Below are positions 1,261-55,487 of a DNA stretch of 64,000 bases, piece after piece (the first letter of the stretch is position 1; each line of letters begins with the position of its first letter). Below the pieces are notes generated by a model. It worked only from the letters and a program-made list of their open reading frames with translations. It did not search any database and was not told the origin of the DNA. This DNA is from a virus. Where the stretch lies: IMG/VR virus record IMGVR_UViG_3300042564_006100, positions 1 through 64,000 of that record; one strand, written 5' to 3'. The position numbers and the translations under genes are program-made.

Positions 1261-1310
1261 GCCCTTGATCGGAGGCACAGATCTGGCAGATGAGTGAAGG
1301 ATGGAGGAGA
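1261..1310 (+). promoter_or_regulatory. Repeated promoter-like block, copy 2 (integrase A)
   Basis: TTGATC at 1265-1270 and CAGATG at 1287-1292 are separated by 16 bases, as in the other two copies. The ATG at 1301 lies 8 bases after the -10-like box, so the integrase message could be leaderless. Copy 3 before integrase B has the same spacing and the same following bases (GGATGGA, GAGAAC). Promoter function is inferred. Confidence 0.45.
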
Positions 1311-2983
1311 ACTTAACCTGCAAAGCCAGCTACCGGATTTCCGGGAAGACGGTTCATGTCGGTCGGGCTTCAAATCCATCCATTCATCCGGGACAGAATG
1401 ACGGGTTTTCCGACGGATTTCTGACAAAGATCCGTGTCGTCACTTGTCGTTCTGGGCAACCCGGAGACTCCAACGACCCAGTCAAACCAATGAAATCAAT
1501 AGATTACACACCGTCCGTGGGCTTCCCGCCCGATCCGCCATCGTTAAAGAGCAATCCCCCAAGTCACTCAAAATCAGTTGATTGTGACGCTAATGAAGGG
1601 ACTGCGACAGGAATTCCAGAAAGAATTCCAGCACACTTGACACGGCGACCGGGTCCGATGACCCGAAAACGTAAACGCAGCAGTGTCGTGGAGATCGGAA
1701 CCGGTCCCGCGAGAGTCAAGATCTACACCGTCAATCGCAAGGACGGCTACTCGATGTTCTCCCTCTATTGGAAGGAAGGTGGCCAGAGAAAGGTTCGCCA
1801 CCTCGCCTGCATGGAGGAAGCCCGCCTGATCGCTCAGCAGACCACGGTCAGACTGACGAACGGGTGGAGCGCCAGTGACGAGGTGACCAAGCGCGAACTT
1901 GAGTTGCTTCGCCACTGCGAGCGCAAAGCCCAAGAATTTGGCGTCAGCCTGACCGCTGCGATGGACGAGTGGGCCAGCGCCCGAAAAGCCGCCGGAGAAA
2001 TCACCCTCTCCGATGCCGTCCGGTTCTACGCTGCAAATCGGATTGACCTGCTCGCCGTCCGAACCATCACCCAGACAGCCGACGAGTTCGTCGAATCCCG
2101 ACGCGGCAGTGGGGTAAGCGACATTTATGTCCGGAACTGCAAGGCAAGCCTGAAGCGGTTCACAGACTGTGTTCAGGGCAACATCACGGACGTGACAGTC
2201 GCCGACATCAACCGATTCCTCAAAGGGCTCAAAGGACTTGGGCCTGTCAGCCGGAACGGAATCCGCCGCAACATCGTGACCATGTTCAGTTTCGCCAAGC
2301 GCCAGGGCTACCTCCACCCCGAACGGAAGACTGCCGCCGAGCTATCCGAGACGTTCAAACAGCCGGAGACGGAGATCCAGATCTTCACCCCGGAGGAAAT
2401 GGAACGACTGCTTTTAGCGGCCCACGCCCGAATCCTCCCCCTCATGGCCATCGGAGCGTTCGCAGGAATTCGGTCAGCGGAAATCCACCGCCTCGATTGG
2501 GAGGACATCAAGTGGGATCGCGGCCACATCGAGATCGCAGGCAAGAAAGCGAAGACAGCAGCGCGGCGACTCGTTCCGCTATCGGACAACCTGAAAGCAT
2601 GGCTTGCCCCGTGGCGCGGCGAGACTGGCAAGATCATCTCCATCACCGACTACTCAGGCGCTCTGAGCGATACTGCCGTGAAAGCCAAGATCCCCGGCGG
2701 ATGGCGGCAGAATGCCCTCAGACACTCGTTCATCAGCTATCGGGTAGCGGAGACCGGCGACGTAGCCCGGACCTCTCTGGAGGCTGGTAACTCCCCGAAA
2801 ATGATCTTCCGCCACTACCGGGAGATCGTGGACGAGGAGGCGGCGAAGGCGTGGTGGTCGATCCGTCCCCCGGAAGGATGGGTGCCTCCGGAACTCAAAT
2901 GGTCGATCAAGCAGCGATTGGAGCGCCTGTCCTGTCGTCAGGACGAGCCATGCGTTGACACAGCCAACGATGCGCAACCATGA
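1301..2983 (+). CDS. int: Tyrosine recombinase (integrase A)
   Basis: The protein has 560 residues. The C-terminal catalytic domain shows the tyrosine recombinase set: first Arg in GAFAGIRSAE, the LRHSFISY His/Arg box, a GNSP turn and the nucleophile Tyr in FRHYREI. An N-terminal arm and SAM-like core-binding region (about residues 120-330) precede it. From the MTRKRKR box at residue 120 it is closely similar to integrase B (53997-55487). The first 40 residues begin MEENLT and match a separate leader ORF upstream of integrase B, so here leader and integrase are fused in frame. The start at 1301 is favoured by the promoter block; 1658 is the alternative. Its stop overlaps the xis start by 4 bases. 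Confidence 0.85.
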   Translation: MEENLTCKASYRISGKTVHVGRASNPSIHPGQNDGFSDGFLTKIRVVTCRSGQPGDSNDPVKPMKSIDYTPSVGFPPDPPSLKSNPPSHSKSVDCDANEGTATGIPERIPAHLTRRPGPMTRKRKRSSVVEIGTGPARVKIYTVNRKDGYSMFSLYWKEGGQRKVRHLACMEEARLIAQQTTVRLTNGWSASDEVTKRELELLRHCERKAQEFGVSLTAAMDEWASARKAAGEITLSDAVRFYAANRIDLLAVRTITQTADEFVESRRGSGVSDIYVRNCKASLKRFTDCVQGNITDVTVADINRFLKGLKGLGPVSRNGIRRNIVTMFSFAKRQGYLHPERKTAAELSETFKQPETEIQIFTPEEMERLLLAAHARILPLMAIGAFAGIRSAEIHRLDWEDIKWDRGHIEIAGKKAKTAARRLVPLSDNLKAWLAPWRGETGKIISITDYSGALSDTAVKAKIPGGWRQNALRHSFISYRVAETGDVARTSLEAGNSPKMIFRHYREIVDEEAAKAWWSIRPPEGWVPPELKWSIKQRLERLSCRQDEPCVDTANDAQP

Positions 2984-33114: not shown

Positions 33115-35295
33115 TCAGAAAGGTTCTTGATCATTTTCATTGGGGATTTCCTGGTTGCGGTCGCGGAGGATCGTCCACGACCGGGTGCGCTGGCGGGCGG
33201 TATCGCGCCCGTAGTTGATTGGGTAGCCTTGGCCCTTGAGTTGCCCGAGGCGGCGTCCGATCTGGTCGGGCGTGTATTTGGCAGCGACGTGCTTGGTGGA
33301 CTCGTCAGCCATCATCTCAGCGAGCAGGTCGGTTGCCGTGCCCGTCCATTCGCTGAGGCCCGGGTTGGAGAACCACGAGCGCAGGAACCGCTCCAGCAGC
33401 TCGATGAAGCCCGCCGTGTTGCCCGACTGGCGTGCGGTCTCGATGAGTGCCGCGTGGTGGTAGCAACGCACTCCAAAGCGCACGTCGCCTTGGCAGTGGA
33501 ACGGAGGGTCGTAATCGCGCAGCCAGCGGGCGAAGGCAGGCAGTTCGGCGCGGATGTGATCCGCTGCATCAGTGAAGTTGCGTTCCGCCGTGCGGATGCG
33601 GAACAAACAAATTTTGTCGAGGATGCTCATCTCGACGTCCGGCAGGATGCGGATCGATTCGGGGTCCGCATTGCAGGTGATCACCACCCGACCGGCCCAC
33701 GGCAGCATGATCTGGTCGCGGAATTTCGGATGGTATTGGAACGCGTAGTTCGCCGGGATCTTCTTGAGCATCGCAGAGTAGAGCTGCTGCTTCTTTGGGT
33801 CCGACGACGGCACCGTGTCGTCCACCGACCAGACGCCCACCTCGAAGAGTTCCTTGTTGAACCGTGATTCACCCAGCAGGTAATCGGAGGCATCCATGTG
33901 GCCGCCGAACAGGCCGCCGATGAGGACGTTGGAAACCAGCGTCTTCCCCTGGTTCACGTCACCGGCGAGGAAGATCGCCTGGCCGTTCTTCGGCTTGCCA
34001 GCAAGCGCGTGGCGGTAGGCGTAGGCCATCCACGACAGGAAGAAGTCGAGTTGCTCGTCCGGGTCGAACAATCCCGCGAGGAAGTCAGCAATCCACGGGA
34101 AACCGTCGCCCCACTCACCAACGCCGGCCACCGGCTCGATGATGCGAGATCGGCTGATGTTGAGATACCGCTTTCCACCGAAATGGATGAGGTGGTCGCG
34201 GCGGAACACGAAGGGCGCGGCCCCGTCGAGACATCGGTTCTGGTGGATTTGTTCAAGCGCGATGTCGAGTGGGGATGCCGTCGCGCCGCCCGGTCGTTCG
34301 TCGGAGATCGTGTGTGCGACCCGCAGGTGGAGCGAGATGTCTGCCTTCTTGAAAAGACGCCAGACACCACCAATCTGGAGCCAGTAATCGCGGCCGTCGA
34401 ACCACGTGCCATTGATCGCGGCACCGATGGTGGATGCCCGAAATTCGTCGGTGAATTTCCTGCCAAAGATTTCGCCCCAGCTGACGAATGGCTTCGGGCC
34501 GGTGAAACATTGCATCCCGCTCGGCCTGACAATCGCGGCACCCGGGCTGTCGGCGCTTTCGTCCCAGAAACGAGGCCCGCGGGCACCGTCTTCGAATGGC
34601 CCAGGCCAGCGGCCGGGGAATCGACGCTCCAGTTCGTCCGCCACACGCTCAAGCGGGACTGTCTCGCCGAGGGCACCCCAGTCGGCATTCTTCGATGCTT
34701 GGATCGCCCACGATTGCAGCAGGTCCACCGAAAAGAGCGTAGAGTGGAGAACCTTCCATCCGTCGCCGCAGTGGTAGTATTGGACCGGGCGTTCGAGCGC
34801 TTCCTCGTCAAGCCCGGGCAGCAGTTTCTTGAGCTTCAGTTCCTTTTTGAACCTAGACACCATTGCCTTCTGTGCCTTCCGATCGAACACCGGCAGCGGA
34901 GCCTCGAACAACCAGAGGGCGCGGGCGTTCCCCGAGAAGGTCGAGCTCACCATGTTCGGCGGATACTCAGGCGACGCCCGCTTAAGGAACGCATCCATCT
35001 CCCCCGGAGCCACCTTGGCGTCGTAGTCGGCGACCAGAGCGTGCATGAACTGCGGTGGATTCTGCTCACTCACGCGCAACGCCACATTCGCACCCTCGTA
35101 GCCGGAGAAGAACAGGCTGTGGGTCGATGGATCGGAGCACCACTTCCGGTATCCCTCCTTGTCGAGGCCGGGAGGAACGGTGCGGGCACCATTGAGCAGC
35201 GGCGACCAGGGTTCGCCAGTGGTGATCCGGTGACTCGATAGATTTTCGAGACAGAATACTTGCGGGAAATTTTGGGTGGGTGGAAGGGAGTTCAT
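33115..35295 (-). CDS. Primase-helicase (SF3-type)
   Basis: 726 residues. The N-terminal 260 residues look like a primase-polymerase domain (HALVADYDAKVAPGE, SSTFSGNARALWLFEAP). The C-terminal helicase has Walker A LAGDVNQGKTLVSN near residue 445, a Walker B region GVWSVDDTVPSS and the sensor segment VVITCNADPESIRILP, as in P4/D5-type superfamily 3 helicases. It primes and unwinds DNA at the phage origin, which lies just downstream. The start overlaps the polymerase C-terminal gene (ATGA). Confidence 0.8.
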   Translation of the reverse strand: MNSLPPTQNFPQVFCLENLSSHRITTGEPWSPLLNGARTVPPGLDKEGYRKWCSDPSTHSLFFSGYEGANVALRVSEQNPPQFMHALVADYDAKVAPGEMDAFLKRASPEYPPNMVSSTFSGNARALWLFEAPLPVFDRKAQKAMVSRFKKELKLKKLLPGLDEEALERPVQYYHCGDGWKVLHSTLFSVDLLQSWAIQASKNADWGALGETVPLERVADELERRFPGRWPGPFEDGARGPRFWDESADSPGAAIVRPSGMQCFTGPKPFVSWGEIFGRKFTDEFRASTIGAAINGTWFDGRDYWLQIGGVWRLFKKADISLHLRVAHTISDERPGGATASPLDIALEQIHQNRCLDGAAPFVFRRDHLIHFGGKRYLNISRSRIIEPVAGVGEWGDGFPWIADFLAGLFDPDEQLDFFLSWMAYAYRHALAGKPKNGQAIFLAGDVNQGKTLVSNVLIGGLFGGHMDASDYLLGESRFNKELFEVGVWSVDDTVPSSDPKKQQLYSAMLKKIPANYAFQYHPKFRDQIMLPWAGRVVITCNADPESIRILPDVEMSILDKICLFRIRTAERNFTDAADHIRAELPAFARWLRDYDPPFHCQGDVRFGVRCYHHAALIETARQSGNTAGFIELLERFLRSWFSNPGLSEWTGTATDLLAEMMADESTKHVAAKYTPDQIGRRLGQLKGQGYPINYGRDTARQRTRSWTILRDRNQEIPNENDQEPF

Positions 35296-35600
35296 TTGCA
35301 GTAGCGGTTGGTGACAATGGCTTCGGCGGCGAGCGGGCAGCCGGTGAGCCAGTCGGGGGTGATAGACATGATTCGCTCGATCTCACGTGGATCGGTGCCG
35401 GGCGTGACCTCGCACACTGCCTCGTCGTGGACGTGGAAGACGACCTCGACTCCCACCCTGTGCAGCCGCAACAGGGATTCACCGAAGACATCGCGGGCCA
35501 CCGCCTGGACGCAATTAGAGACGATAAAGGGTTTTCCATCGCCGCCGCGAACGGTGAAGCGGCGGCGGGGACCGGCATTGAGAATATCGTAAACTTTCAT
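35292..35600 (-). CDS. IntC plus C-terminal part of DNA polymerase A
   Basis: 102 residues. Residues 1-29 are a C-terminal intein half: VYDILNAGPRRRFTV (block F) and FIVSN (block G) ending in the required Asn. The next residue is Cys, the +1 nucleophile, opening the extein CVQAVARDVFGESLL and polymerase motif C VVFHVHDEAVCEV with the catalytic HDE. Alone it has no polymerase core, so it must be joined to the product of 36222-38021 by protein trans-splicing. The ATG overlaps the HNH gene stop. Confidence 0.85.
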   Translation of the reverse strand: MKVYDILNAGPRRRFTVRGGDGKPFIVSNCVQAVARDVFGESLLRLHRVGVEVVFHVHDEAVCEVTPGTDPREIERIMSITPDWLTGCPLAAEAIVTNRYCK

Positions 35601-36235
35601 GGTTGGATTCGGTTGGTGTAGTTGGGTTCGATCAACAGCTTGTCGGCGGGCCAGCCGCTCTTGATTCGATAGAGAATGGTCGTGACCCCGACGCCGAACC
35701 GCTCAGACGCTTCCGCCACAGTCATTCGCCCAACCGGTGTGGCGATTGCCACGTTGTTCCGCTTGTTCCGGCACTGCGTCTTGCGTGACGCCCAGCGGCA
35801 GTTCTCCTTTGAATAGCCGCCGTCGTTGTTGATTCGGTCGAGACTGAGGCCAGGCGCATAGCTGCCGCCCATGTCGCCCCAGAAGGGCTCGAAGTTCAGC
35901 CACTCAGGACAAACACAAACGCCCCTGCCGCCATAGTTCTTAAATGCCCGGTGTCGTGAGTTACGGCACCTTGCCAGCATTGAACTCCAGACGGCAAACG
36001 CCGGGTGCCGGGACATCGAATGGGTGGACCGTTTTTCGCTTATGGCGGAGGCAAAGAGCGGGCAGCGGTGTGAGCAGAAGCGGGCATTCCGTAGTTCCGT
36101 GCCGACCTTGACGGTCGCACTGCCGCAGACGCAGCGAACCTCCCAAAGCGAGTGGTGACCATCGGTGCCGCATGCAGCAAGCACCGTGAGATGACCGAAC
36201 GTTTGGCCGACGAGTGACAGTCTAGGCTTCGGCAT
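35597..36235 (-). CDS. Free-standing HNH homing endonuclease
   Basis: 212 residues. N-terminal cysteine pairs (CVCGS, FCSHRC) suggest a zinc site. The HNH core reads AFAVWSSMLARCRN, YGGRGVCVCPEW, SLDRINNDGGYSKENCRW. A C-terminal segment AEASERFGVGVTTILYRIK is a helix-turn-helix for DNA binding. It lies between the two intein halves of the polymerase, overlapping the gene before (start inside its last codons) and the gene after (ATGA). It is expected to cut polymerase genes without the insertion and so spread it. Confidence 0.8.
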   Translation of the reverse strand: MPKPRLSLVGQTFGHLTVLAACGTDGHHSLWEVRCVCGSATVKVGTELRNARFCSHRCPLFASAISEKRSTHSMSRHPAFAVWSSMLARCRNSRHRAFKNYGGRGVCVCPEWLNFEPFWGDMGGSYAPGLSLDRINNDGGYSKENCRWASRKTQCRNKRNNVAIATPVGRMTVAEASERFGVGVTTILYRIKSGWPADKLLIEPNYTNRIQP

Positions 36236-38021
36236 AATATTCCGCTGCCTCCTGGTGAGTGGTTTCCGCCGAGGCCAGCCAACCGGCGCGTGTCAGCACC
36301 TTGTGGTCGGGAGTGACGCGCACACCTCCGAAATCAATGGTTTCGCGGTCGCCCTGCTCGACGACGCCGGAGTGAGTAACCCACTCGACGCCATCCCAAA
36401 CGAGATCGTCCTGTCCGACTTGCTCGATGGGCATCCATCCGGAATTGGTGAGAACTTCCGTGCCTTCGCCCAAACAGTTCTCACACAATTTTCCGCCGTA
36501 GAAGGGAATCCGGCGACTGCCGCGCTCGACGCGGGCGGTCCATCCACCGGATGACCTAACATCGCGGTAGGTCAGTTTTCGCCCGGACGGGAGCTCGACG
36601 ACAAAGTCACCACCTGAGGATCGTTTGAAGTCGTTCTGCAGTTGGTTCCACAGCGCAGTGATTTTGCGGTTCGACCCGCGGAACGACTCAACAGTGCGGG
36701 TCGCTTCCTGGGAGCTGATCGTGATGCCGGCCATGGTGCGGGCGACTTCGACGAAACGCTCGGGGCCGCACCCGTATCCCAGACCGAGGACGCGGGCTTT
36801 CGCCAGCGAGTAGAGCTCGGCGTTCTCCTTCTTCAGATTGCCGCCAGTCCACCCCATCGTGGCGCGGGCGTGCGCCTCGTAGAGCGGGACGCCATCGGCA
36901 AGTTGATCCAGTAGGACGGTGTCGCCACAAAGCCACGCGAGCACCCGTGGTTCGATCTGCGAGAGGTCACAGATGATGAACTCCTTGCCGGGGCGTGGCA
37001 CGATGCACCCGCGAAGGTCGGCACCGTAGGATTCCCCGCGTGGCAAATTCTGGCAGTTGAATCCGGAGTCGCCGCTCCACCGACCGGTGTGGGCACCAAA
37101 ATATTTGAGACCGAAGCCCATGCAGCCATCCGTCGGGCGAATCCGATCCTTCATCACCCGGAGCTTCTCACGCAGCGCGTTGGTTTTGCGGAATGTCCGC
37201 ATCGCAGCGACCCACGGAAACTTCTCGCCGTGGATATTCTCCCATGCAGCACACGCTGGGTCGTCTTCGGAAGTGGACGGCGGCGGTGGGATAGAGTTGG
37301 CCCGGCAATGTTCTCCTAGGGATTTAATCGAGAGCACGGCGGCATCGCCATCGGCCCACGGGATGTCGTTGCGGGCCTGCCACATCACAAGGTCGAGGGA
37401 GGCGACCGCCTGGTCGGCGAGTTCCGTGTCGATGCGGACGCCGCGCCAGCCTGACGTCATCGTCAGATGGGCAAGCTCGCGTTCGTTTTCCGGCCACTCA
37501 TGCGAGTGCTGCTGCCAAAGGTCGAAGCAGGTCCGGGCGTCCCGAATGACGTAATCCCGCATCTCGTCGGCGCGGCCGGCGTCCACCGCGTCCTGCCAAG
37601 TCCTGCCTTTCATCCAAGTGCGCAGGTCCTTGGTGACATCGACGCCGAGGAGCTCACGGGCCGCGCCAGCCAGATTCCGTGGCGCTCCGAGATACACCGA
37701 AAGGTTGGCCGTGCATCCACCACCGGCAAACTCGATATGGTCGGGAATCACGCCGTCGCGGGCGAGCTTTGCCAGCACGAGTCCGTCCCACGAAAGGTTG
37801 TGGGCAACGATGAACTTGCCGTGGAGCAGGCTCCAATCAAAGTCCTTCGGGTGGCCGGCCCATTCGATGCCCTCACCGACAACACCCATGAGGTAGATGT
37901 CGCACCTGGGGTCGTTCAAATAGTGCCACTGACCGAGCGACTTGATGTCGCAGCCCTTGCCGTAGAACGACTCAAAGTCCACGGCGACGACAGACGGCAT
38001 GGAAGTTGAATCAGTTTCCAT
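36222..38021 (-). CDS. polA: DNA polymerase A N-terminal part with IntN
   Basis: 599 residues; a start at 38000 (MPSVVAVDFESF) is an alternative. Residues 10-200 are a 3'-5' exonuclease (VAVDFESFYGKG, VAHNLSWD). The polymerase domain has motif A ICDLSQIEPRVLAW and motif B with KARVLGLGYGCG. The extein ends GGKLCEN at residue 515. Then an 84-residue N-terminal intein half begins with Cys: CLGEGTEVLTNSGWM (block A) and GVRVTPDHKVLTRAGW (block B, TPDH). Motif C is missing here and is carried by 35292-35600. Splicing would restore KLCEN-CVQAVARD, the normal sequence of the family. Confidence 0.88.
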   Translation of the reverse strand: METDSTSMPSVVAVDFESFYGKGCDIKSLGQWHYLNDPRCDIYLMGVVGEGIEWAGHPKDFDWSLLHGKFIVAHNLSWDGLVLAKLARDGVIPDHIEFAGGGCTANLSVYLGAPRNLAGAARELLGVDVTKDLRTWMKGRTWQDAVDAGRADEMRDYVIRDARTCFDLWQQHSHEWPENERELAHLTMTSGWRGVRIDTELADQAVASLDLVMWQARNDIPWADGDAAVLSIKSLGEHCRANSIPPPPSTSEDDPACAAWENIHGEKFPWVAAMRTFRKTNALREKLRVMKDRIRPTDGCMGFGLKYFGAHTGRWSGDSGFNCQNLPRGESYGADLRGCIVPRPGKEFIICDLSQIEPRVLAWLCGDTVLLDQLADGVPLYEAHARATMGWTGGNLKKENAELYSLAKARVLGLGYGCGPERFVEVARTMAGITISSQEATRTVESFRGSNRKITALWNQLQNDFKRSSGGDFVVELPSGRKLTYRDVRSSGGWTARVERGSRRIPFYGGKLCENCLGEGTEVLTNSGWMPIEQVGQDDLVWDGVEWVTHSGVVEQGDRETIDFGGVRVTPDHKVLTRAGWLASAETTHQEAAEYYAEA

Positions 38022-38388
38022 GCTGATTGTCTGGATGAGAGCTACGAACGATCAGTTCTAATGTCCGATCCGCGTCTTCATTGAAGTCGAGGTCAGGCTG
38101 GCATTCGCTCCGCGCCTGCCATGCTCCAGCCAAAAGGCCACAATCGAGAAGGCTGAGGCCATTGACCACATGATCCGCAATCCGACGGCACCTGTCCTTC
38201 GCGCATATAGCCACAAGATCCATGGCGAGGCGCTTTGATCGCGGCAGTCCCTCGTTTGATGCAATTTCTTCTCGAAGAAGTTCCCACTCAGCATTGAGCT
38301 CTGCAGCTCGGATTAGAGCGTCGAGCAACGATCGCTGAATTTCGTCAGCATTTAGTGGAAGCGGTTCTGGGTGGTCTGTGTTAGCCAT
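38011..38388 (-). CDS. Prophage protein, unknown
   Basis: 125 residues from the ATG at 38388 (MANTDHPEPL). Mostly helical; the last bases overlap the start of the polymerase gene. An inverted repeat lies ahead of it (ACGACCGG at 38404-38411 with its complement at 38428-38435) without a T-run. No function is known. Confidence 0.5.
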   Translation of the reverse strand: MANTDHPEPLPLNADEIQRSLLDALIRAAELNAEWELLREEIASNEGLPRSKRLAMDLVAICAKDRCRRIADHVVNGLSLLDCGLLAGAWQARSECQPDLDFNEDADRTLELIVRSSHPDNQHGN

Positions 38389-38454
38389 ACCCATAAATGC
38401 GACACGACCGGCCGGGATTGGCCCCGACCGGTCGTGAAGTAGTCAGTTTCTGAA

Positions 38455-45959: not shown

Positions 45960-46568
45960 GTGAACCCCATCTACAAACACCCCACGATCAAGGATCTCGC
46001 ACAGGTCCGGGCCGGCTACCAGACCCGGAAAGAGGTGAAATCCACCCCGACCGGGTCGCATGCCCTACTCCAAATCCGAGACTTCAACGACGAGCGCACC
46101 CGGATCGATCTCGAAAACATCGTTCGCATTGAGCCGGGGGCAATCAACGAGGACCAAGTGCTCCGCGATGGAGACGTGATCTTCCTCTCGAAGGGCAGCA
46201 AGAATTTCAGCTTTGCGCCATCCTCTCTCCCTGAGCCCGCGCTGGCGGCATCATATTTTTTCATCCTCCGCCCGTCACATTCTTTATCCTCCGACTACCT
46301 CGCATGGTTCCTGAACCTGGAGAGCACCAAAGACCACTTACGTAAATATGCGACTCAGGGCGCGCACATGTCTGTTGTTCGTCGGGACGTTCTCGAAAGC
46401 TTGGAAGTCCCACTGCCGGATTTGGAGACCCAGCAAAAAATCGTCGAGCTTGCCACGCTTGCCGAACGGCAGCATGCGCTGCACGCGGAACTTGCGGAGA
46501 AGAAGAAGAGCCTAGCGACTGCCGCATGCCTTAAAGCCGCCAAACAATCTACCAACCAAACACAATGA
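45960..46568 (+). CDS. hsdS: Half-size type I specificity subunit
   Basis: 202 residues from a GTG at 45960 (VNPIYKHPTIKDLAQVRAG). One target recognition domain (residues 5-150: SHALLQIRDFND, VIFLSKGSKNF, MSVVRRDVLESLEVPLPDL) and one dimerising helix (ETQQKIVELATLAERQ). Normal HsdS has two of each. It starts the operon and overlaps hsdM by four bases. It may pair with itself or exchange with the full-size HsdS to give a second specificity. Extra half subunits are known to change recognition in other type I systems. Confidence 0.7.
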   Translation: MNPIYKHPTIKDLAQVRAGYQTRKEVKSTPTGSHALLQIRDFNDERTRIDLENIVRIEPGAINEDQVLRDGDVIFLSKGSKNFSFAPSSLPEPALAASYFFILRPSHSLSSDYLAWFLNLESTKDHLRKYATQGAHMSVVRRDVLESLEVPLPDLETQQKIVELATLAERQHALHAELAEKKKSLATAACLKAAKQSTNQTQ

Positions 46569-48073
46569 CCGACCAACAAATTAAAGACGAAATCTTCAAC
46601 GTCGTGTGGAGTGCCTGCGATACCTTTCGCGGCGTCATCGATCCCAGTGGCTACAAGGACTACATCCTAACGATGTTGTTCGTGAAGTACCTGAGCGACG
46701 TCCGGAAGTCGAAGCTCGAAGAATACGAGGTGAAATACAAACGCGATCAAACCCGCATTGATCGGGCCATGTCCCGGGAGCGCTTCACTGTTCCCGAGGA
46801 TTGCACCTTCGAGTTCATCTACTCCAACCGTGATGACAGCAACATTGGCCAAGTCATCAACACCGTCCTAGAGAAAATCGAAGACGCCAACAAGGCCAAG
46901 CTCCACAACGTCTTCCGCAACATCGACTTCAACAGCGAGTCCAACCTTGGTAAGACCCGCCAGCGCAACCAGCGACTCAAGACGGTGCTGGAGGACTTTG
47001 CGAATAAGAAGCTCGACCTTCGGCCCGAGCGCGTGGGCCACATGGACATCGTCGGCGACGTTTACGAATACCTGATTTCCCGGTTCGCGGCACAGGCTGG
47101 AAAGAAGGCTGGCGAGTTTTACACCCCGGCTGAGGTATCCGAGACCCTCGCCCGCTTGGTTGCCCCTCAGGACGGCGACCGCATTTGTGATCCAACCTGC
47201 GGGTCGGGCTCGCTCCTCGTCAAGGCCTCAAAGCAGGTCCCCACGAAGAACTTCTCGCTCTTCGGTCAGGAGATGAACGGTAGCACATGGGCGCTGTGCA
47301 AAATGAACATGTTCCTGCACGAAGTCGATGCCGCACGCATCGAGTGGGAAGACACGATCCGCCACCCGATGCTAGTCGAGAATGACGCCCTGATGAAGTT
47401 TGACGTCGTCATCGCCAATCCACCTTTCAGTCTCGACAAGTGGGGGCAGGAGATCGCGGCCAGTGATCAATACGACCGCTTCCACGCCGGGATTCCACCG
47501 AAGAGCAAGGGCGACTGGGCCTTCATCAGCCACATGATTGCCACCGCGCTTGAGGGCAAAGGGCGAGTCGGCGTCGTCGTCCCTCACGGTGTCCTCTTCC
47601 GTGGCGGGCAGGAGGGAACGATTCGTCAATACATGATCGAGCAGAACTACCTTGCCGGGGTGGTCGGCCTGCCTAGTAACCTATTTTATGGAGCCGGAAT
47701 CCCAGCGGCGCTACTGATCTTCGATAAGAGCCGAACGACCGGGGCGAAGGAGGACGTCTTCTTCATCGACGCCTCTCGCGAGTTCGAGCAGGGCACCAAC
47801 CAGAACCGACTGCGGCCGCAGGACATGAACAAGATCGTCGAGACCTTCCAGAAGCGGACCGTCATCGACAAATACTCCTACCTCGCAAGGTTCGACGAGA
47901 TCGCGGAGAACGACTACAACCTGAATATCCCGCGCTACGTCGACACCTTCGAGCCCGAGGCAGAGATCGACATGGCGGAGGTACAGAAGGACATCGGTCA
48001 CATCAAAAAGGAACTGGCCGAGGTTGAGGCGCAGATGGAAATTTACCTGGAGGAACTCGGATTCAAACCATGA
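46565..48073 (+). CDS. hsdM: Type I DNA methyltransferase subunit
   Basis: 502 residues. HsdM N-terminal helical domain (KDEIFNVVWSACDTFRG, YILTMLFVKYLSDV), then the N6-adenine methyltransferase: motif I region CDPTCGSGSLL near residue 215, and motif IV VIANPPFSLDKWG near residue 285. It methylates adenines at the site chosen by HsdS and is part of the M2S and R2M2S complexes. Length and domain order are normal. It overlaps hsdS by four bases at each end of the gene. Confidence 0.93.
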   Translation: MTDQQIKDEIFNVVWSACDTFRGVIDPSGYKDYILTMLFVKYLSDVRKSKLEEYEVKYKRDQTRIDRAMSRERFTVPEDCTFEFIYSNRDDSNIGQVINTVLEKIEDANKAKLHNVFRNIDFNSESNLGKTRQRNQRLKTVLEDFANKKLDLRPERVGHMDIVGDVYEYLISRFAAQAGKKAGEFYTPAEVSETLARLVAPQDGDRICDPTCGSGSLLVKASKQVPTKNFSLFGQEMNGSTWALCKMNMFLHEVDAARIEWEDTIRHPMLVENDALMKFDVVIANPPFSLDKWGQEIAASDQYDRFHAGIPPKSKGDWAFISHMIATALEGKGRVGVVVPHGVLFRGGQEGTIRQYMIEQNYLAGVVGLPSNLFYGAGIPAALLIFDKSRTTGAKEDVFFIDASREFEQGTNQNRLRPQDMNKIVETFQKRTVIDKYSYLARFDEIAENDYNLNIPRYVDTFEPEAEIDMAEVQKDIGHIKKELAEVEAQMEIYLEELGFKP

Positions 48074-49323
48074 GTGATCGGAACAAAAACAAGCCCGGCT
48101 ATAAGGAGACCAAAGCTGGGTGGATGCCAAGCGATTGGCAGTGTCGAACCTTGGATTCGATAGCAACCCGCCTAACTGGGCATACCCCTGACAACAATGT
48201 TCCGGAGTACTGGAACGGTGGAGTAAAATGGGTTTCTCTGGCCGACTCAGATCGTCTTGATCGAGGCTTGATTCTTAGCACCGACAAGGAAATCAGCGAT
48301 CTGGGCATCAAGCACTCCTCTGCCCGTCGACTGCCATACGGCACGGTAGTTCTGTTGAGAGATGCTTCGGTCGGAAAGGTCGGGATTCTTGCTCAAGAAA
48401 TGGCTGTTAGTCAGCACTTCGTGGCATGGGTCTGCGGTGGAGAACTTGAGAACCGCTATCTCTACTACTGGCTATTGTCGCAACGGAGGCTTTTTGTTCG
48501 CGTGGCTGTAGGCACCACCATCGTCACAATTGGAATGCCATTTTTCGCTAAGCTCACGGTGCCTGTGCCACCCCTGCCCGAGCAGATTGAAATCGCTGAC
48601 ATTCTCACCACCTGCGACGAGGTTATTGAGAAGACGAGCGCGCTGATAAACTCAAAGAAGCAGCAGAAAAAAACACTCATGCATCAACTACTCACCGGTA
48701 AGAAACGCCTGCCAAGGTTTGAGGGGGAGTGGACCAAGGTTGTGCTGGCTAATCTTTGCACACGACTGAAGGAGGTTGCAGAGAATCCCGATGGATACCC
48801 CGTTCTCAGTATTACAGCCAGAACTGGATTCGTTTCCCAGGAAGATAAGTTCAGCCGCGTGATCGCGGGCAAGCAGGTTGAGAACTACGTTGTACTGAAG
48901 CGTGGAGATTTCGCTTACAACAAAGGAAACTCTTACCTGTATCCACAAGGCTGTGTCTATCAGCTATCAGAATACGATGAGGGTCTTGTTCCCAATGTTT
49001 TTTACTCATTCAGGCTCGATGAAGCGTGTGCGGATGCTGATTTCATCAAGCAGTACTTCCTTGCGGGCTTGCACAACAAGGATCTGTACCGCTGGATCAA
49101 CTCCGGGGTGCGGAACAATGGATTGCTTAATTTGAACGCATCGGATTTTTTCAAACTGCCGATCAGTCTCCCACCACTGCCTGAGCAGAAAGCCATTGGA
49201 AATGTTTTCCGTGAGGCTGACACCGAGATCAGAGCGCTCGATGCGAAGCTGAAGTCACTCAAGCAGCAGAAAAAAGCACTGATGCAAAAACTCCTCACTG
49301 GCCAAGTCCGCGTGAAGGTCTGA
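48070..49323 (+). CDS. hsdS: Type I specificity subunit, full size
   Basis: 417 residues with two target recognition domains, each followed by a conserved helix: first LPEQIEIADILTTCDEVIEK with LMHQLLTGKKRL, second LPEQKAIGNVFREADTEI with LMQKLLTGQVRV. The two recognition domains differ, so the target should be bipartite and asymmetric. It lies between hsdM and hsdR, with 12 bases before hsdR. Confidence 0.92.
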   Translation: MSDRNKNKPGYKETKAGWMPSDWQCRTLDSIATRLTGHTPDNNVPEYWNGGVKWVSLADSDRLDRGLILSTDKEISDLGIKHSSARRLPYGTVVLLRDASVGKVGILAQEMAVSQHFVAWVCGGELENRYLYYWLLSQRRLFVRVAVGTTIVTIGMPFFAKLTVPVPPLPEQIEIADILTTCDEVIEKTSALINSKKQQKKTLMHQLLTGKKRLPRFEGEWTKVVLANLCTRLKEVAENPDGYPVLSITARTGFVSQEDKFSRVIAGKQVENYVVLKRGDFAYNKGNSYLYPQGCVYQLSEYDEGLVPNVFYSFRLDEACADADFIKQYFLAGLHNKDLYRWINSGVRNNGLLNLNASDFFKLPISLPPLPEQKAIGNVFREADTEIRALDAKLKSLKQQKKALMQKLLTGQVRVKV

Positions 49324-49335
49324 CCCCACCAAATC

Positions 49336-52300
49336 ATGGAATACGCAACGCATTATCAGACCCCGAGCTACCTTGAAAAGGTGCAGAGCCAGCTTCCGGC
49401 TTTGCAGCTGCTCATCGAGATGGGGTGGGAATACCTGCCGCCGGAAGAATGCAACCGCCTGCGTGGAGACCGGTTAGGAACGGCCATTCTGGAACCGATT
49501 CTACTCGACTTCATCCGCAAGAACGGGCGCTACACCTTCAAGGGACGGGAGCATGTCTTTACCGAGAACGCTGTTGCCAACGCAGTTCAGGTGCTCAAAG
49601 CCTTCCGAGCCACCGGTGCAATTCACCAGAACGAGGAGGCCTACGACCTACTCTGCCTCGGCACCAGTGTGCCACAGACGGTGGATGGTGACACCAAGAG
49701 CTTTTCCATTGGCTACATCGACTGGAAGCACCCGGAGAACAACCGTTATCACTGTACCGCCGAGTTCAAGGTTGAGCGAGTTGGCCTGCAAAAGCACTAC
49801 ATCCCGGACATCATCCTATACGTCAACGGCATCCCGCTGGTGGTGATCGAATGCAAGCGGAGCGCCTACAACGACCTCAAGAAACAGCCAATCGATCTGG
49901 CGATTGACCAGTTGCGCGGCTACCAGCAGAAGGATGGCATCCCCCAGGTTTTCCTCTATTCGCAGCTCCTTCTCGCCCTCGCGCGAGACAAGGCGGAATA
50001 CGGCACCACTGGCACGCCTCGGAAATTCTGGACGGTGTGGAAGGAAGACGGATTGGACAAATCGATCCTTGAGCTGATCCATCGCCCCATGAAGGAAGGT
50101 TCGCCACTCCTCGATGCGCCCTTCCAGCAGGAAGCTGCTGAGTTTCTAAAACTCCACAACGGGAGACGGGCCATTTATGCGCAGGACCGAGCCCTCTACT
50201 CCCTTTGCCGGCCCGAGCGCCTGCTACAGCTGACCTACCAGAATATCGTTTACGACAACGGCACCAAGAAGATTGCCCGCTACCAGCAGTTCTTTGCGGT
50301 GGCAGACATCTTGAGGCGGATCCGCAGCGGCGGGTCGTCCGAGCCTAGGGCTGGCGGCGTGGTCTGGCAAACCCAGGGCAGTGGGAAGTCGCTCACCATG
50401 GTGATGCTGGCCAAAGCCCTTGCGCTAGCCCCAGATGTTCTCACACCCAAGGTGATTCTCGTGACCGATCGGATCGACCTGGACGACCAGATCTGCGGCA
50501 CCTTCCGTGCCTGCGGTCTGGAACCCGAGCAGGCCAGCACTGGCGAGCATCTCGTCAAACTCATGAACGATGACAAGGCTCACGTCGTAACCACTCTGAT
50601 CCACAAGTTCGAGGCAGCGACGAAGAACCGCGGACTGGCGGAGGTCTCCCGCGATACATTCGTCTTGGTGGATGAAGCCCACCGAAGCAACTACTCAGAG
50701 CATCATGCTCGGATGAAAATAGCGCTAAAGGGGGCCTGCTTCATCGCCTTCACCGGAACGCCGCTGGCGAAGGACGCGAAGAAAAATACCTTTGGCAAGT
50801 TTGGCGCTTTGTTCACTCCGCCCTACACAATTTCGCAAGCGGTGGCCGACGGAGCGGTGACGCCACTTCTCTACGAGGCCCGACATGTCCCCCAAAACGT
50901 CGATCAAGGGCCGATTGACAGTTGGTTTGAGAAGTTGACGCTTGGATTGAACGAGAAGCAGCGGGCTGACCTGAAGCGAAAGTTTTCCTCCGCGAGGCAA
51001 TTGAACAAAGCTGAGCAGAAGGTGCGCATGGTCGCATGGGATGTCACCCGACACTACGTAACGACCTACCAGGGAACCGGTATGAAGGGCCAGCTGGTGG
51101 CTCCCGACAAGGCTACTGCGCTACTCTACAAGAGCTTCTTCGATGAGTTTGACCAGGTTAGCACCGAGATCCTGATGTCCGGGCCGAACACCGCTGAGGG
51201 CGAGGACGGCAAAAAGAAGGAAGTCTCCACGCACGAGAAGACGTTCTGGAATCGAATGATGGACCGCTATGGCTCCGAGGATAAATACAACAAGCAGCTG
51301 ATCAATGCATTCAAGAAGGGTGACGAGCCAGAGATCATCATCGTGGTCGATAAGCTGCTCACTGGTTTCGACGCACCCTGCAACGCGGTTCTATACCTCG
51401 CCAGGACCCTGAAGGGGCACACCCTGCTGCAGGCCATCGCGCGGGTGAACCGTCTTTTCGATGGCAAAGAATACGGTCTCATTCTTGACTACAGCGGCGT
51501 GATAGAGGAACTGGACGAGGCAATTGATTTCTACTCTCAACTCGCCGATTTCGATGAATCGGATCTCGCGGAAACCGTGCACACCGTTGAGGAGGAAGCT
51601 GCCAAGCTTCCGCAGTATCATTCTGATCTCTGGGAACTCTTTGCTGCTCTAAAAGGAAGCGCCGACCCGGAAGTGTTTGCCCAGAGCCTGCGCGATGAAG
51701 AAAAGCGCAACCGGTTCTATGAGCGCTTCAGCCTCTTCGCTCGAACTCTTTCGATGGCGCTGTCATCCACCACTTTTCTGACGAACACGCCGGAGAAAAC
51801 AGTCCAGCGCTACAAGACAGACCTGAAGTTCTTCGCCAACCTAAGGGCTGACGTTTCCATCCGATTCCAAGAGCGCATCGATTTCTCCGAGTATGAACCC
51901 AAGATCCAGAAGCTGCTCGACACGCATGTGGGTGCCGGGGAGATTGTGAAACTTTGCGAACCGATCAACCTGTTTGATGCCAAGGAGCGCCAAGAGGTGC
52001 TGGAGGACCAGGGGAAGAGCGCGGAGGCCAAAGCTGACATGATTGCCTCGGCCACGCAGCGCACAATCGAGAAGGAGATGGAGAAAGATCCCGCATTCTA
52101 CACCAAGTTCTCGAAGATGCTTCGGGACGTGCTGGAGGCTCTCCAACAGAAGCGGATGGAGGCTATCGAGGCGCTGGAGAAAATCAAGGACATCGCAACC
52201 AAGGTAGCTACCCACACCGACGACAGCATCCCCGAAGAACTCGTAACCCGCGACATGGCTAGACGATACTACGGAGTGATCCGGGAAGAAGTCCGCGAAC

Positions 52301-52533
52301 ACAACGCCCAGCCCAAGGCTGCGATCCGGATTGCCATGGAGATCCAGAGCCGAATTGGGGATCACAAAATACGGGACTTCCGGGATAATCCCGATGCCCT
52401 GAACCGGATGCGGAATGAAATCGACGACGTGTTCTTCGAGGTGATCGAGGAGATGGGGCTCGAGATCCCATTGGACGTTCAGGATAAGTTGATCGACAAG
52501 TGCATTGAAATCACGATCGCCAATGAGGACTGA
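49336..52533 (+). CDS. hsdR: Type I restriction endonuclease subunit
   Basis: 1065 residues. The N-terminal nuclease has VVIECKRSAYNDLKKQ (the ECK of PD-(D/E)XK) and the QLRGY motif. The SF2 translocase has Walker A VWQTQGSGKSLTMVM near residue 345, VDEAHRSNY (DEAH) near residue 440, FTGTPL, and late motifs VDKLLTGFDAP and LLQAIARVNR. The C-terminal helical domain binds the methyltransferase. Complete and of usual length, so the system can both cut and protect. Confidence 0.93.
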   Translation: MEYATHYQTPSYLEKVQSQLPALQLLIEMGWEYLPPEECNRLRGDRLGTAILEPILLDFIRKNGRYTFKGREHVFTENAVANAVQVLKAFRATGAIHQNEEAYDLLCLGTSVPQTVDGDTKSFSIGYIDWKHPENNRYHCTAEFKVERVGLQKHYIPDIILYVNGIPLVVIECKRSAYNDLKKQPIDLAIDQLRGYQQKDGIPQVFLYSQLLLALARDKAEYGTTGTPRKFWTVWKEDGLDKSILELIHRPMKEGSPLLDAPFQQEAAEFLKLHNGRRAIYAQDRALYSLCRPERLLQLTYQNIVYDNGTKKIARYQQFFAVADILRRIRSGGSSEPRAGGVVWQTQGSGKSLTMVMLAKALALAPDVLTPKVILVTDRIDLDDQICGTFRACGLEPEQASTGEHLVKLMNDDKAHVVTTLIHKFEAATKNRGLAEVSRDTFVLVDEAHRSNYSEHHARMKIALKGACFIAFTGTPLAKDAKKNTFGKFGALFTPPYTISQAVADGAVTPLLYEARHVPQNVDQGPIDSWFEKLTLGLNEKQRADLKRKFSSARQLNKAEQKVRMVAWDVTRHYVTTYQGTGMKGQLVAPDKATALLYKSFFDEFDQVSTEILMSGPNTAEGEDGKKKEVSTHEKTFWNRMMDRYGSEDKYNKQLINAFKKGDEPEIIIVVDKLLTGFDAPCNAVLYLARTLKGHTLLQAIARVNRLFDGKEYGLILDYSGVIEELDEAIDFYSQLADFDESDLAETVHTVEEEAAKLPQYHSDLWELFAALKGSADPEVFAQSLRDEEKRNRFYERFSLFARTLSMALSSTTFLTNTPEKTVQRYKTDLKFFANLRADVSIRFQERIDFSEYEPKIQKLLDTHVGAGEIVKLCEPINLFDAKERQEVLEDQGKSAEAKADMIASATQRTIEKEMEKDPAFYTKFSKMLRDVLEALQQKRMEAIEALEKIKDIATKVATHTDDSIPEELVTRDMARRYYGVIREEVREHNAQPKAAIRIAMEIQSRIGDHKIRDFRDNPDALNRMRNEIDDVFFEVIEEMGLEIPLDVQDKLIDKCIEITIANED

Positions 52534-53996: not shown

Positions 53997-55487
53997 ATGA
54001 GCAAAAGCAGACAAGCAGGTGGGGTCCTAACCCCTCCGCCATCTGGTTGCTCAATCGACGCAACTGATACGCCATCAACAACTTGCGAGCCTTCAGAGCA
54101 AACCGGGACAGATTTTCCTGACAGTTTTTCTGACAAGTTGACTCGAAAGCCGGGGTCTATGACCCGGAAACGCAAACGCCGTAGCAGTGTCGTGGAAATC
54201 GGCAACGGTCCCGCGAGAATCAAAATCTACACGATGAACCGTCGGGATGGTTATCCCGAGTTCACGCTTTCATGGAAGGAGGCGGCCAGGCGCAAGACGC
54301 GCAGCTTCTCCTCGATGGACGAAGCACGGATGATCGCCCAGCAGATCAGCGTCCGTCTGACCAATGGCTGGACGGCCGCCGATGAAGCGACCCGCCGCGA
54401 CATCGACCTGCTCCGCCACTGCGAGCAAGTAGCTCGTGAGCATGGAGTCGGTCTTTCCGCCGCGATGGACGAATGGGCCAGCGCACGGAAAGCCGCAGGT
54501 GAAATCCCACTGTCCGATGCGGTGCGGTTCTATCAAGCAAACCGGGCAGATCTATTTGCCGTCCGCACCAACGTCCAGGTAGCCGCCGAGTTCGTCGTGT
54601 CGCTGAAACGCAAGGGCGTGAGTGCCATCTATGTTCGGAACGCGACTAGCAGCCTCAAGCGGGTCACCGATGCCATGCCGGGAAATATCGCAGATGTCAG
54701 CGTGGCCGACATCAACCGGTTCCTCGACAGCCTCAAGACGCTTGGGCCGGTCAGCAAGAACGGCATTCGGCGCAACCTCGTTACGATGTTTGGATTCGCC
54801 AAGAAACAGGGATACCTCCATCCCGACCGGAAAACTGCTGCGGAACAGAGCGACTCGTTCAAGGAGCCTGAGAAGGAGATCGAGATTTTTACGCCGGACG
54901 AGATGCGTGACATCCTGCTCGCCGCCCACGCCCGCATCCTGCCGCTCATCGCCATCGGCGGATTTTGCGGAATTCGGTCTGCCGAGGTCGAACGCCTCAC
55001 CTGGCAGGACATCAAATGGGATCGCGGCCACATCGAGATCGCCGGCCACAAGGCGAAGACGGCGGCGCGGCGACTCGTCCCCCTCCCCGAGAATCTCAAG
55101 GCGTGGCTTGCGCCATGGCGTGATGAAACCGGCCCTATCCTCACGATCAGCGATGTATCGGGTGCCTTGGGTGATACCGCAGTGAAGGCGAAAATCCCCG
55201 GCGGATGGCGTCAGAATGCCCTCAGACACTCGTTCATCAGCTATCGAGTATCACTGACAGGCGACGTAGCTCGAACCTCTCTGGAGGCAGGCAACTCCCC
55301 GAAAATGATCTTCCGCCACTATCGGGAAATCGTGGATGAGGAAGCCGCCCGGACATGGTTCGGGATGACGCCTCCCGATGGCTGGATGCCGACGGGACTC
55401 AAGCACAGCCTGCGGGAACGGATGTGGCGCTTGCTGGCACAAGATGGGACACCGCGTGTTGACAGCGATAACAGTGAGCAATCATGA
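53997..55487 (+). CDS. int: Tyrosine recombinase (integrase B)
   Basis: 496 residues; MTRKRKRRSS at residue 55 begins the part conserved with integrase A. Catalytic residues: Arg in GGFCGIRSAEVERL, LRHSFISYR, GNSPKMIFRHYREI with the Tyr. The core-binding region (SDAVRFYQANRADLFAVRT) is also shared. The sequence LTRKPG before MTRKRKR is also kept between the copies. It should integrate prophage B at a site like that used by A. Stop overlaps xis by four bases. Confidence 0.87.
   Translation: MSKSRQAGGVLTPPPSGCSIDATDTPSTTCEPSEQTGTDFPDSFSDKLTRKPGSMTRKRKRRSSVVEIGNGPARIKIYTMNRRDGYPEFTLSWKEAARRKTRSFSSMDEARMIAQQISVRLTNGWTAADEATRRDIDLLRHCEQVAREHGVGLSAAMDEWASARKAAGEIPLSDAVRFYQANRADLFAVRTNVQVAAEFVVSLKRKGVSAIYVRNATSSLKRVTDAMPGNIADVSVADINRFLDSLKTLGPVSKNGIRRNLVTMFGFAKKQGYLHPDRKTAAEQSDSFKEPEKEIEIFTPDEMRDILLAAHARILPLIAIGGFCGIRSAEVERLTWQDIKWDRGHIEIAGHKAKTAARRLVPLPENLKAWLAPWRDETGPILTISDVSGALGDTAVKAKIPGGWRQNALRHSFISYRVSLTGDVARTSLEAGNSPKMIFRHYREIVDEEAARTWFGMTPPDGWMPTGLKHSLRERMWRLLAQDGTPRVDSDNSEQS

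What the first reader, a model, noticed from the sequence alone, without database searches (positions are those of the whole stretch)
35292..38021. Fractured DNA polymerase: split intein with a free-standing HNH gene between the halves
Seen: the family A polymerase gene at 36222-38021 ends in an 84-residue N-terminal intein half starting with Cys after GGKLCEN. The gene at 35292-35600 begins with a 29-residue C-terminal intein half ending FIVSN, followed by Cys and the missing polymerase motif C. Joining gives KLCEN-CVQAVARD, a normal family A sequence. Between them lies an HNH endonuclease gene that overlaps both neighbours. Known: fractured genes with split inteins and a nearby endonuclease were described from phage metagenomes, with a Vsr-like nuclease. 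Inference: this is such an arrangement in a prophage of a probable Verrucomicrobiota, with an HNH enzyme and at a polymerase site just before motif C.
Basis: partly seen in the sequence, partly recalled or inferred. Interest (0 to 1): 0.93.

Follow-up and report, generated by a model that had tools for sequence, protein, structure and literature searches.

The report
Split-intein DNA polymerase with HNH gene
In this prophage the DNA polymerase is made as two pieces that a split self-splicing protein element should stitch together, with a homing-type nuclease gene between the pieces; more than a hundred relatives show the same nuclease gene hidden in a second reading frame of an unsplit element, which suggests how such splits arise.

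Summary
Confirmed. On the minus strand, PolA-N+IntN (36222-38021), an HNH gene (35597-36235) and IntC+PolA-C (35292-35600) overlap end to end. The pol frame has five stops between the halves, so the split is real. Two 85-87% identical polymerases are uninterrupted at that codon (KLCEN|LVQA, against KLCEN|CVQA here): codon-exact empty sites. The record holds no other PolA.

Best reading: a trans-splicing class-1-like split intein with a homing HNH enzyme, a fractured gene; splicing and cleavage were not tested. A split intein with HNH between polymerase halves is already reported (PolB, phage MIJ3).

New here: in 131 of 140 distinct relatives the intein is contiguous and the HNH gene lies inside it OUT OF FRAME. 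The intein frame stays stop-free (0 stops; ~641 expected from synonymous shuffles), while substitutions show that the HNH frame is the conserved protein. In fractured copies stops return to chance level. Four fractured copies at this site share 53-61% identical splicing domains and ATGA overlaps, in polymerases mostly only 26-30% identical. A second fractured family (~35 contigs) sits at the QNLP site.

I infer: contiguous intein with overprinted HNH -> frame closes -> mobile split cassette.

The parts
36477..38021 (-). PolA N-extein, 515 aa: exonuclease-like N-terminal part plus polymerase motifs A (CDLSQIE) and B (K..GLGYG)
   Evidence: motifs read from the sequence; 85-87% identical to uninterrupted relatives L002/L003
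36225..36476 (-). IntN, 84 codons, first residue Cys1, block B TPDH; stop TAG at 36222-36224
36222..36235 (-). 14-nt overlap of the polN/IntN gene with the HNH gene
36248..36253 (-). AGGAGG, Shine-Dalgarno-like, 12 nt before the HNH ATG
   Evidence: sequence
35597..36235 (-). HNH endonuclease gene, 212 aa, frame +1 relative to PolA
   Evidence: phrog_374 5e-55; 41-56% identical to HNH proteins of relatives
35597..35600 (-). ATGA overlap of the HNH stop and the IntC start
   Evidence: same overlap in L192, L193, L267
35514..35600 (-). IntC, 29 codons, MKVYDILNAGP...FIVSN; same reading register as IntN
35292..35513 (-). PolA C-extein, Cys+1 then VQAVARD and motif C (VHDE), 73 aa plus stop
   Evidence: phrog_17 1148-1231, phrog_7766 8.9e-21; aligns to intact relatives
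35514..36476 (-). the whole 963-bp insertion relative to empty-site relatives

Best explanation
A mobile fractured-gene cassette. The polymerase is translated as PolA-N+IntN and IntC+PolA-C from one overlapping operon, with the HNH gene between. The intein halves associate, fold as a Hint domain and trans-splice by the standard Cys1 / Asn / Cys+1 route, giving a 588-residue family A polymerase (inferred). Neither half holds a whole active site (motifs A and B in one, C in the other). The HNH protein is a homing endonuclease that cuts intein-less polA at this codon junction, so that repair copies the whole 963-bp cassette, including the Leu-to-Cys +1 codon (inferred). By descent it comes from contiguous inteins whose HNH gene is overprinted out of frame; once a stop closed the intein frame and IntC gained a start codon overlapping the HNH stop, the open-frame constraint was lifted and the split form spread on its own (inferred from comparisons).
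For: Anatomy and profile continuity. Intein identity by sequence and fold. Codon-exact empty sites. Single PolA. Three more fractured copies with the same three-gene overlap. Cassette similarity (splicing domain 53-61%; window HNH 47-48% to L192/L193) against 26-30% for most polymerase pairs. The four fractured copies group in the splicing-domain tree (SH-aLRT 80), and one HNH clade with L182 is not rejected (p-AU 0.705). 131 of 140 relatives are contiguous with the HNH out of frame: 0 stops against ~641 expected, while fractured copies have chance-level stops (window 5 vs 6.0; L192 11 vs 11.9; L193 7 vs 4.4; L267 22 vs 19.8). In contiguous pairs the HNH third codon positions vary about three times more than the first two, and the intein-frame linker changes about twice as many residues as the HNH.
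Against: No splicing or cleavage assay. The penultimate residue is Ser, not His, although several contiguous relatives share it. Curated Pfam/NCBIfam intein models do not fire on IntN or IntC. Tree support is moderate, and in the free HNH tree L267 falls apart from the others. The direction contiguous-to-fractured is inferred from parsimony; no outgroup roots the tree, and the QNLP-site family is fractured in nearly all members found.
Confidence: 0.82

Rival explanations
1. The insertion is a self-splicing group I or II intron carrying an HNH gene, removed at RNA level. Sodalis phage SO-1 is annotated this way.
For: HNH genes are common in phage group I introns; the SO-1 record notes a type I intron at a homologous element.
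Against: No Rfam match in window 35200-37000 even at E<=1, and no intron family in nine related loci. Intein motifs, the Hint fold and Cys+1 explain the ends. 131 relatives keep the protein frame open, which an intron would not need.
Confidence: 0.03
2. Genes in pieces: the two polymerase halves associate without splicing, as reported for a ribonucleotide reductase split by a homing endonuclease gene; the intein tails are remnants.
For: Known for another enzyme (Friedrich et al. 2007, cited in PMC10448857). Penultimate Ser is unusual.
Against: Cys1, TxxH, terminal Asn and Cys+1 are kept in all four fractured copies at 53-61% identity across very divergent polymerases, which argues for selection on splicing. 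The +1 residue is Leu in intein-free relatives and Cys here.
Confidence: 0.08
3. A decaying locus: a formerly contiguous intein broken by stops, polymerase dead.
For: Stops in the linker are at chance level.
Against: Stops fall only in the linker; HNH, both intein halves and both extein halves stay open with overlapping starts, and the same layout recurs in three other contigs.
Confidence: 0.04
4. The HNH enzyme is a bystander that lost its homing role; the split intein alone persists.
For: HNH-less mini-inteins and a split intein with no HNH detected (L303) exist.
Against: A full-length HNH is kept in all four fractured copies at this site, and cassette identity exceeds host-gene identity.
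Confidence: 0.12

Closest known systems
Fractured genes with split inteins and a nearby endonuclease (Dassa et al. 2009, NAR 37:2560; known here from citing papers and memory, text not held)
   Same: Gene in two ORFs, each with an intein half, and an endonuclease gene between
   Different: HNH rather than the Vsr-like family (as I recall it); PolA; overlapping ORFs; kin of inteins with an overprinted HNH gene
Phage MIJ3 PolB split intein with HNH orf154 between orfs 153 and 155 (PMC6892783)
   Same: DNA polymerase halves, split intein, HNH gene between
   Different: Family B polymerase; no overprinted relatives described in the passages read
APSE-1 P45/P46, Sodalis phage SO-1 gp38/gp39, Shewanella SFCi1, Caulobacter GB2A (records)
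   Same: Homologous intein in PolA and homologous HNH; APSE-1, SFCi1 and GB2A in the same KL.EN/QA region
   Different: Contiguous intein; HNH gene nested out of frame inside the pol ORF; SO-1 sits at the motif B site and is annotated as an intron
ShiLan domain, hidden out-of-frame HNH in a phage methylase (PMC11855218)
   Same: HNH gene overprinted in a frame that stays open
   Different: No splicing domain; not an intein and not split
Nanoarchaeum Neq Pol intein (NEQ068 structures)
   Same: Split intein of a DNA polymerase; only PDB sequence match of the profile at E<=0.01
   Different: Archaeal family B polymerase; other split and site (from general knowledge)

Membership tests
Split intein, class 1 | Cys/Ser at position 1, TxxH in block B, terminal Asn, Cys/Ser/Thr at +1 | tested here: met
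   CLGEGT, TPDH...SN, C in the sequence; alignments
Split intein, class 1 | Penultimate His in block G (usual, not universal, so not used to exclude) | tested here: not met
   Ser-Asn here; also in contiguous or mini relatives L142, L185, L187, L218, L262
Split intein, class 1 | Hint fold | tested here: met
   by a homologous contiguous mini-intein, not the split pair itself:
Split intein, class 1 | Two halves encoded by separate ORFs | tested here: met
   five stops in the shared frame, separate starts
Split intein, class 1 | Trans-splicing activity | not testable with these tools
   needs co-expression
Fractured gene arrangement | Endonuclease gene between the halves | tested here: met
Fractured gene arrangement | Vsr-like endonuclease as in the first description (recalled; not required by later reports) | tested here: not met
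   HNH phrogs instead; MIJ3 shows HNH variants exist
HNH homing endonuclease | HNH domain homology | tested here: met
   phrog_374 5e-55, phrog_3377 2.6e-49
HNH homing endonuclease | Precise insertion with empty-site relatives and spread between divergent host genes | tested here: met
HNH homing endonuclease | Cleavage of the empty site | not testable with these tools
   needs an assay
Group I/II intron | Intron RNA structure | tested here: not met
   no Rfam match

The most novel reading that the evidence does not exclude
Phage inteins carry their homing endonuclease as a separate gene overprinted in another reading frame, the intein frame being kept open only as a stop-free linker; closing that frame yields a split intein plus an operonic HNH gene, which then homes as a split cassette. 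This would be a general birth route for natural split inteins and fractured genes.
Probability: 0.6. Interest if true: 0.8.

Novelty: new variant of a known kind. Interest (0 to 1): 0.63.

Why it matters
Natural split inteins are heavily used tools, and how they arise is open. Here closely comparable states are found at one polymerase codon: empty site, mini-intein, contiguous intein with the HNH overprinted out of frame, fractured split intein with overlapping HNH, and a free-standing HNH beside an intein-less polymerase. That makes the route testable. The overprinting, seen in over a hundred sequences, means the linker of these inteins is not an endonuclease domain at all and that gene callers can miss or misname the enzyme. 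New trans-splicing pairs with short IntC (29 aa) are also candidates for protein engineering.

Tried and rejected
Assembly error or one-stop read-through: five stops in the window and matching contigs. Intron: no Rfam support. Uniqueness of the find: false, other fractured copies exist. Fractured copies in bacterial genomes: none found with the IntC pattern, but contiguous overprinted copies in Alicyclobacillus, Novosphingobium and Arsenophonus. A rescan for more C-site fractured contigs gave only the same three. A co-conversion tract near the insertion: flank identity to L002/L003 shows no clear dip beyond the +1 codon. The HNH tree alone did not unite the fractured copies in the free search; the constrained test found a better tree with them united, but does not prove it. 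Dassa 2009 and Gorbalenya 1998 not held, so priority for overprinted HNH in inteins could not be fully checked.

Full report
OBSERVATION. The minus strand carries an overlapping run: a 127-aa gene of unknown function (38011-38394), PolA-N+IntN (36222-38021, 599 aa), HNH (35597-36235, 212 aa), IntC+PolA-C (35292-35600, 102 aa), then a gene with weak primase matches (33115-35295). In the phrog_17 profile the two polymerase pieces cover 672-1142 and 1148-1231, so together they make one polymerase. IntN and IntC are in the same register but five stops lie between them. The HNH start lies inside the IntN gene (14-nt overlap) and the HNH stop shares ATGA with the IntC start. There is only one PolA, one IntN and one HNH of this family in the 103,827-bp record.

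EMPTY SITES. Two IMG/VR contigs with 85-87% identical polymerases (L002, L003) are uninterrupted: GGKLCEN|LVQAVARD. The window reads GGKLCEN|CVQAVARD across the 963-bp insert. The only residue changed at the junction is the +1 residue, from Leu to the Cys that splicing needs.

INTEIN IDENTITY. IntN finds 326 phage records, the best in DNA polymerase genes. A profile of ten family members finds only the NEQ068 intein in the PDB at E<=0.01 (3.4e-5). AlphaFold2 on a natural mini-intein of the family (L103:4001-4408, seven sequences) gives pLDDT 90.8, and all strong Foldseek matches are inteins or intein-like Hint domains.

THE UNEXPECTED PART. In the named phages APSE-1, SFCi1, GB2A, MR14, 97.13, EBPR siphovirus 2, Javan113, vB_Gva_AB1, Ijeoma, SO-1 and EP23, and in over a hundred IMG/VR contigs, the homologous intein is contiguous, and the HNH gene lies inside it in another frame: +1 at the motif C site, mostly +2 at the motif B site, never in frame. 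I shuffled synonymous HNH codons within each sequence: 131 of 140 distinct sequences have no stop in the intein frame, where about 641 stops would be expected in all; the unused third frame has many. Among close pairs, changes pile up at HNH third codon positions (for example 30, 24, 96), and the intein-frame linker changes about twice as many residues as the HNH. So the HNH frame is the conserved protein, and the intein frame is kept stop-free without its residues being conserved. HNH starts often follow AAGG/GAGG-like sites within IntN codons. APSE-1 and SO-1 records list the HNH CDS, but I found no paper in the held library that describes out-of-frame HNH genes within inteins; the nearest is the ShiLan element, which is not an intein (PMC11855218). 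Papers that are not held could describe it.

FRACTURED COPIES. Nine of the 140 have stops in that frame, at chance level: window 5 (expected 6.0), L192 11 (11.9), L193 7 (4.4), L267 22 (19.8), L110 14 (14.8), and four at another site. Window, L192, L193 and L267 sit at the same polymerase site and share MKVYD at the IntC start, VSN|C at its end, a TAG stop overlapping the HNH start by 14-47 nt, and the ATGA overlap. Their splicing domains are 53-61% identical; their polymerases 26-30%, apart from L192/L193 at 41%. They group in the splicing-domain tree (SH-aLRT 80); for HNH a clade with the free-standing HNH of L182 is not rejected and fits better than the free tree. This fits one fracture followed by horizontal spread, but does not prove it.

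SECOND FAMILY. About 35 contigs (L283-L320) have fractured polymerases at a different site, before DxxNLQNLP, with HNH at +1 and IntC mostly at +2. L148 has such a split plus a contiguous overprinted intein in the same polymerase.

HOW IT LIKELY WORKS. Shown: anatomy, empty sites, family relations, frame constraint and its release. Inferred: trans-splicing, HNH cleavage, homing, direction of change. The direction argument: an unconstrained frame of this length typically carries several stops (about 4-20 in the fractured copies), so a contiguous form would hardly arise from a fractured one, while the reverse needs one stop and one start. In window and L267 the halves still keep the same register.

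KNOWN AND NEW. Fractured genes with split inteins are known (Dassa 2009, via citations), and a split-intein DNA polymerase with HNH between its halves is reported in phage MIJ3 (PolB, PMC6892783). New, as far as the held literature shows, are PolA copies with HNH, a second site, and the link to overprinted contiguous inteins. I rate this a new variant of a known kind.

Noticed in passing
L283-L320 (e.g. L148:2733-3700): A second family of fractured PolA genes at the DxxNLQNLP site, ~35 contigs, HNH between; L303 is split there with no HNH detected.
   Followed up: partly
L182:3365-4012: Intein-less polymerase with altered site (GGKFTAE|LVQA) and, right after its stop, a free-standing HNH gene 56% identical to the window's.
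   Followed up: partly
L099 (Sodalis phage SO-1): gp38/gp39 annotated as a type I intron; Rfam finds none, and the sequence is a contiguous intein with out-of-frame HNH.
   Followed up: partly
L111, L140, L141, L107, L345: Overprinted HNH inteins also sit in helicase-like genes (motifs read by eye, not run through a family search); L345 carries one in PolA and one in a neighbouring gene.
   Followed up: partly
L110:4001-5120: Another fractured intein at CISR|CVQSGGHDLL with a divergent HNH that seems to change frame near its end.
   Followed up: no
window 46565-52533: Type I restriction-modification genes (hsdM, hsdS, hsdR) within the element.
   Followed up: no
window 1301-2983 and 53997-55487: Two tyrosine integrase-like genes flank the phage genes; Mrr-like nuclease at 175-1242.
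   Followed up: no
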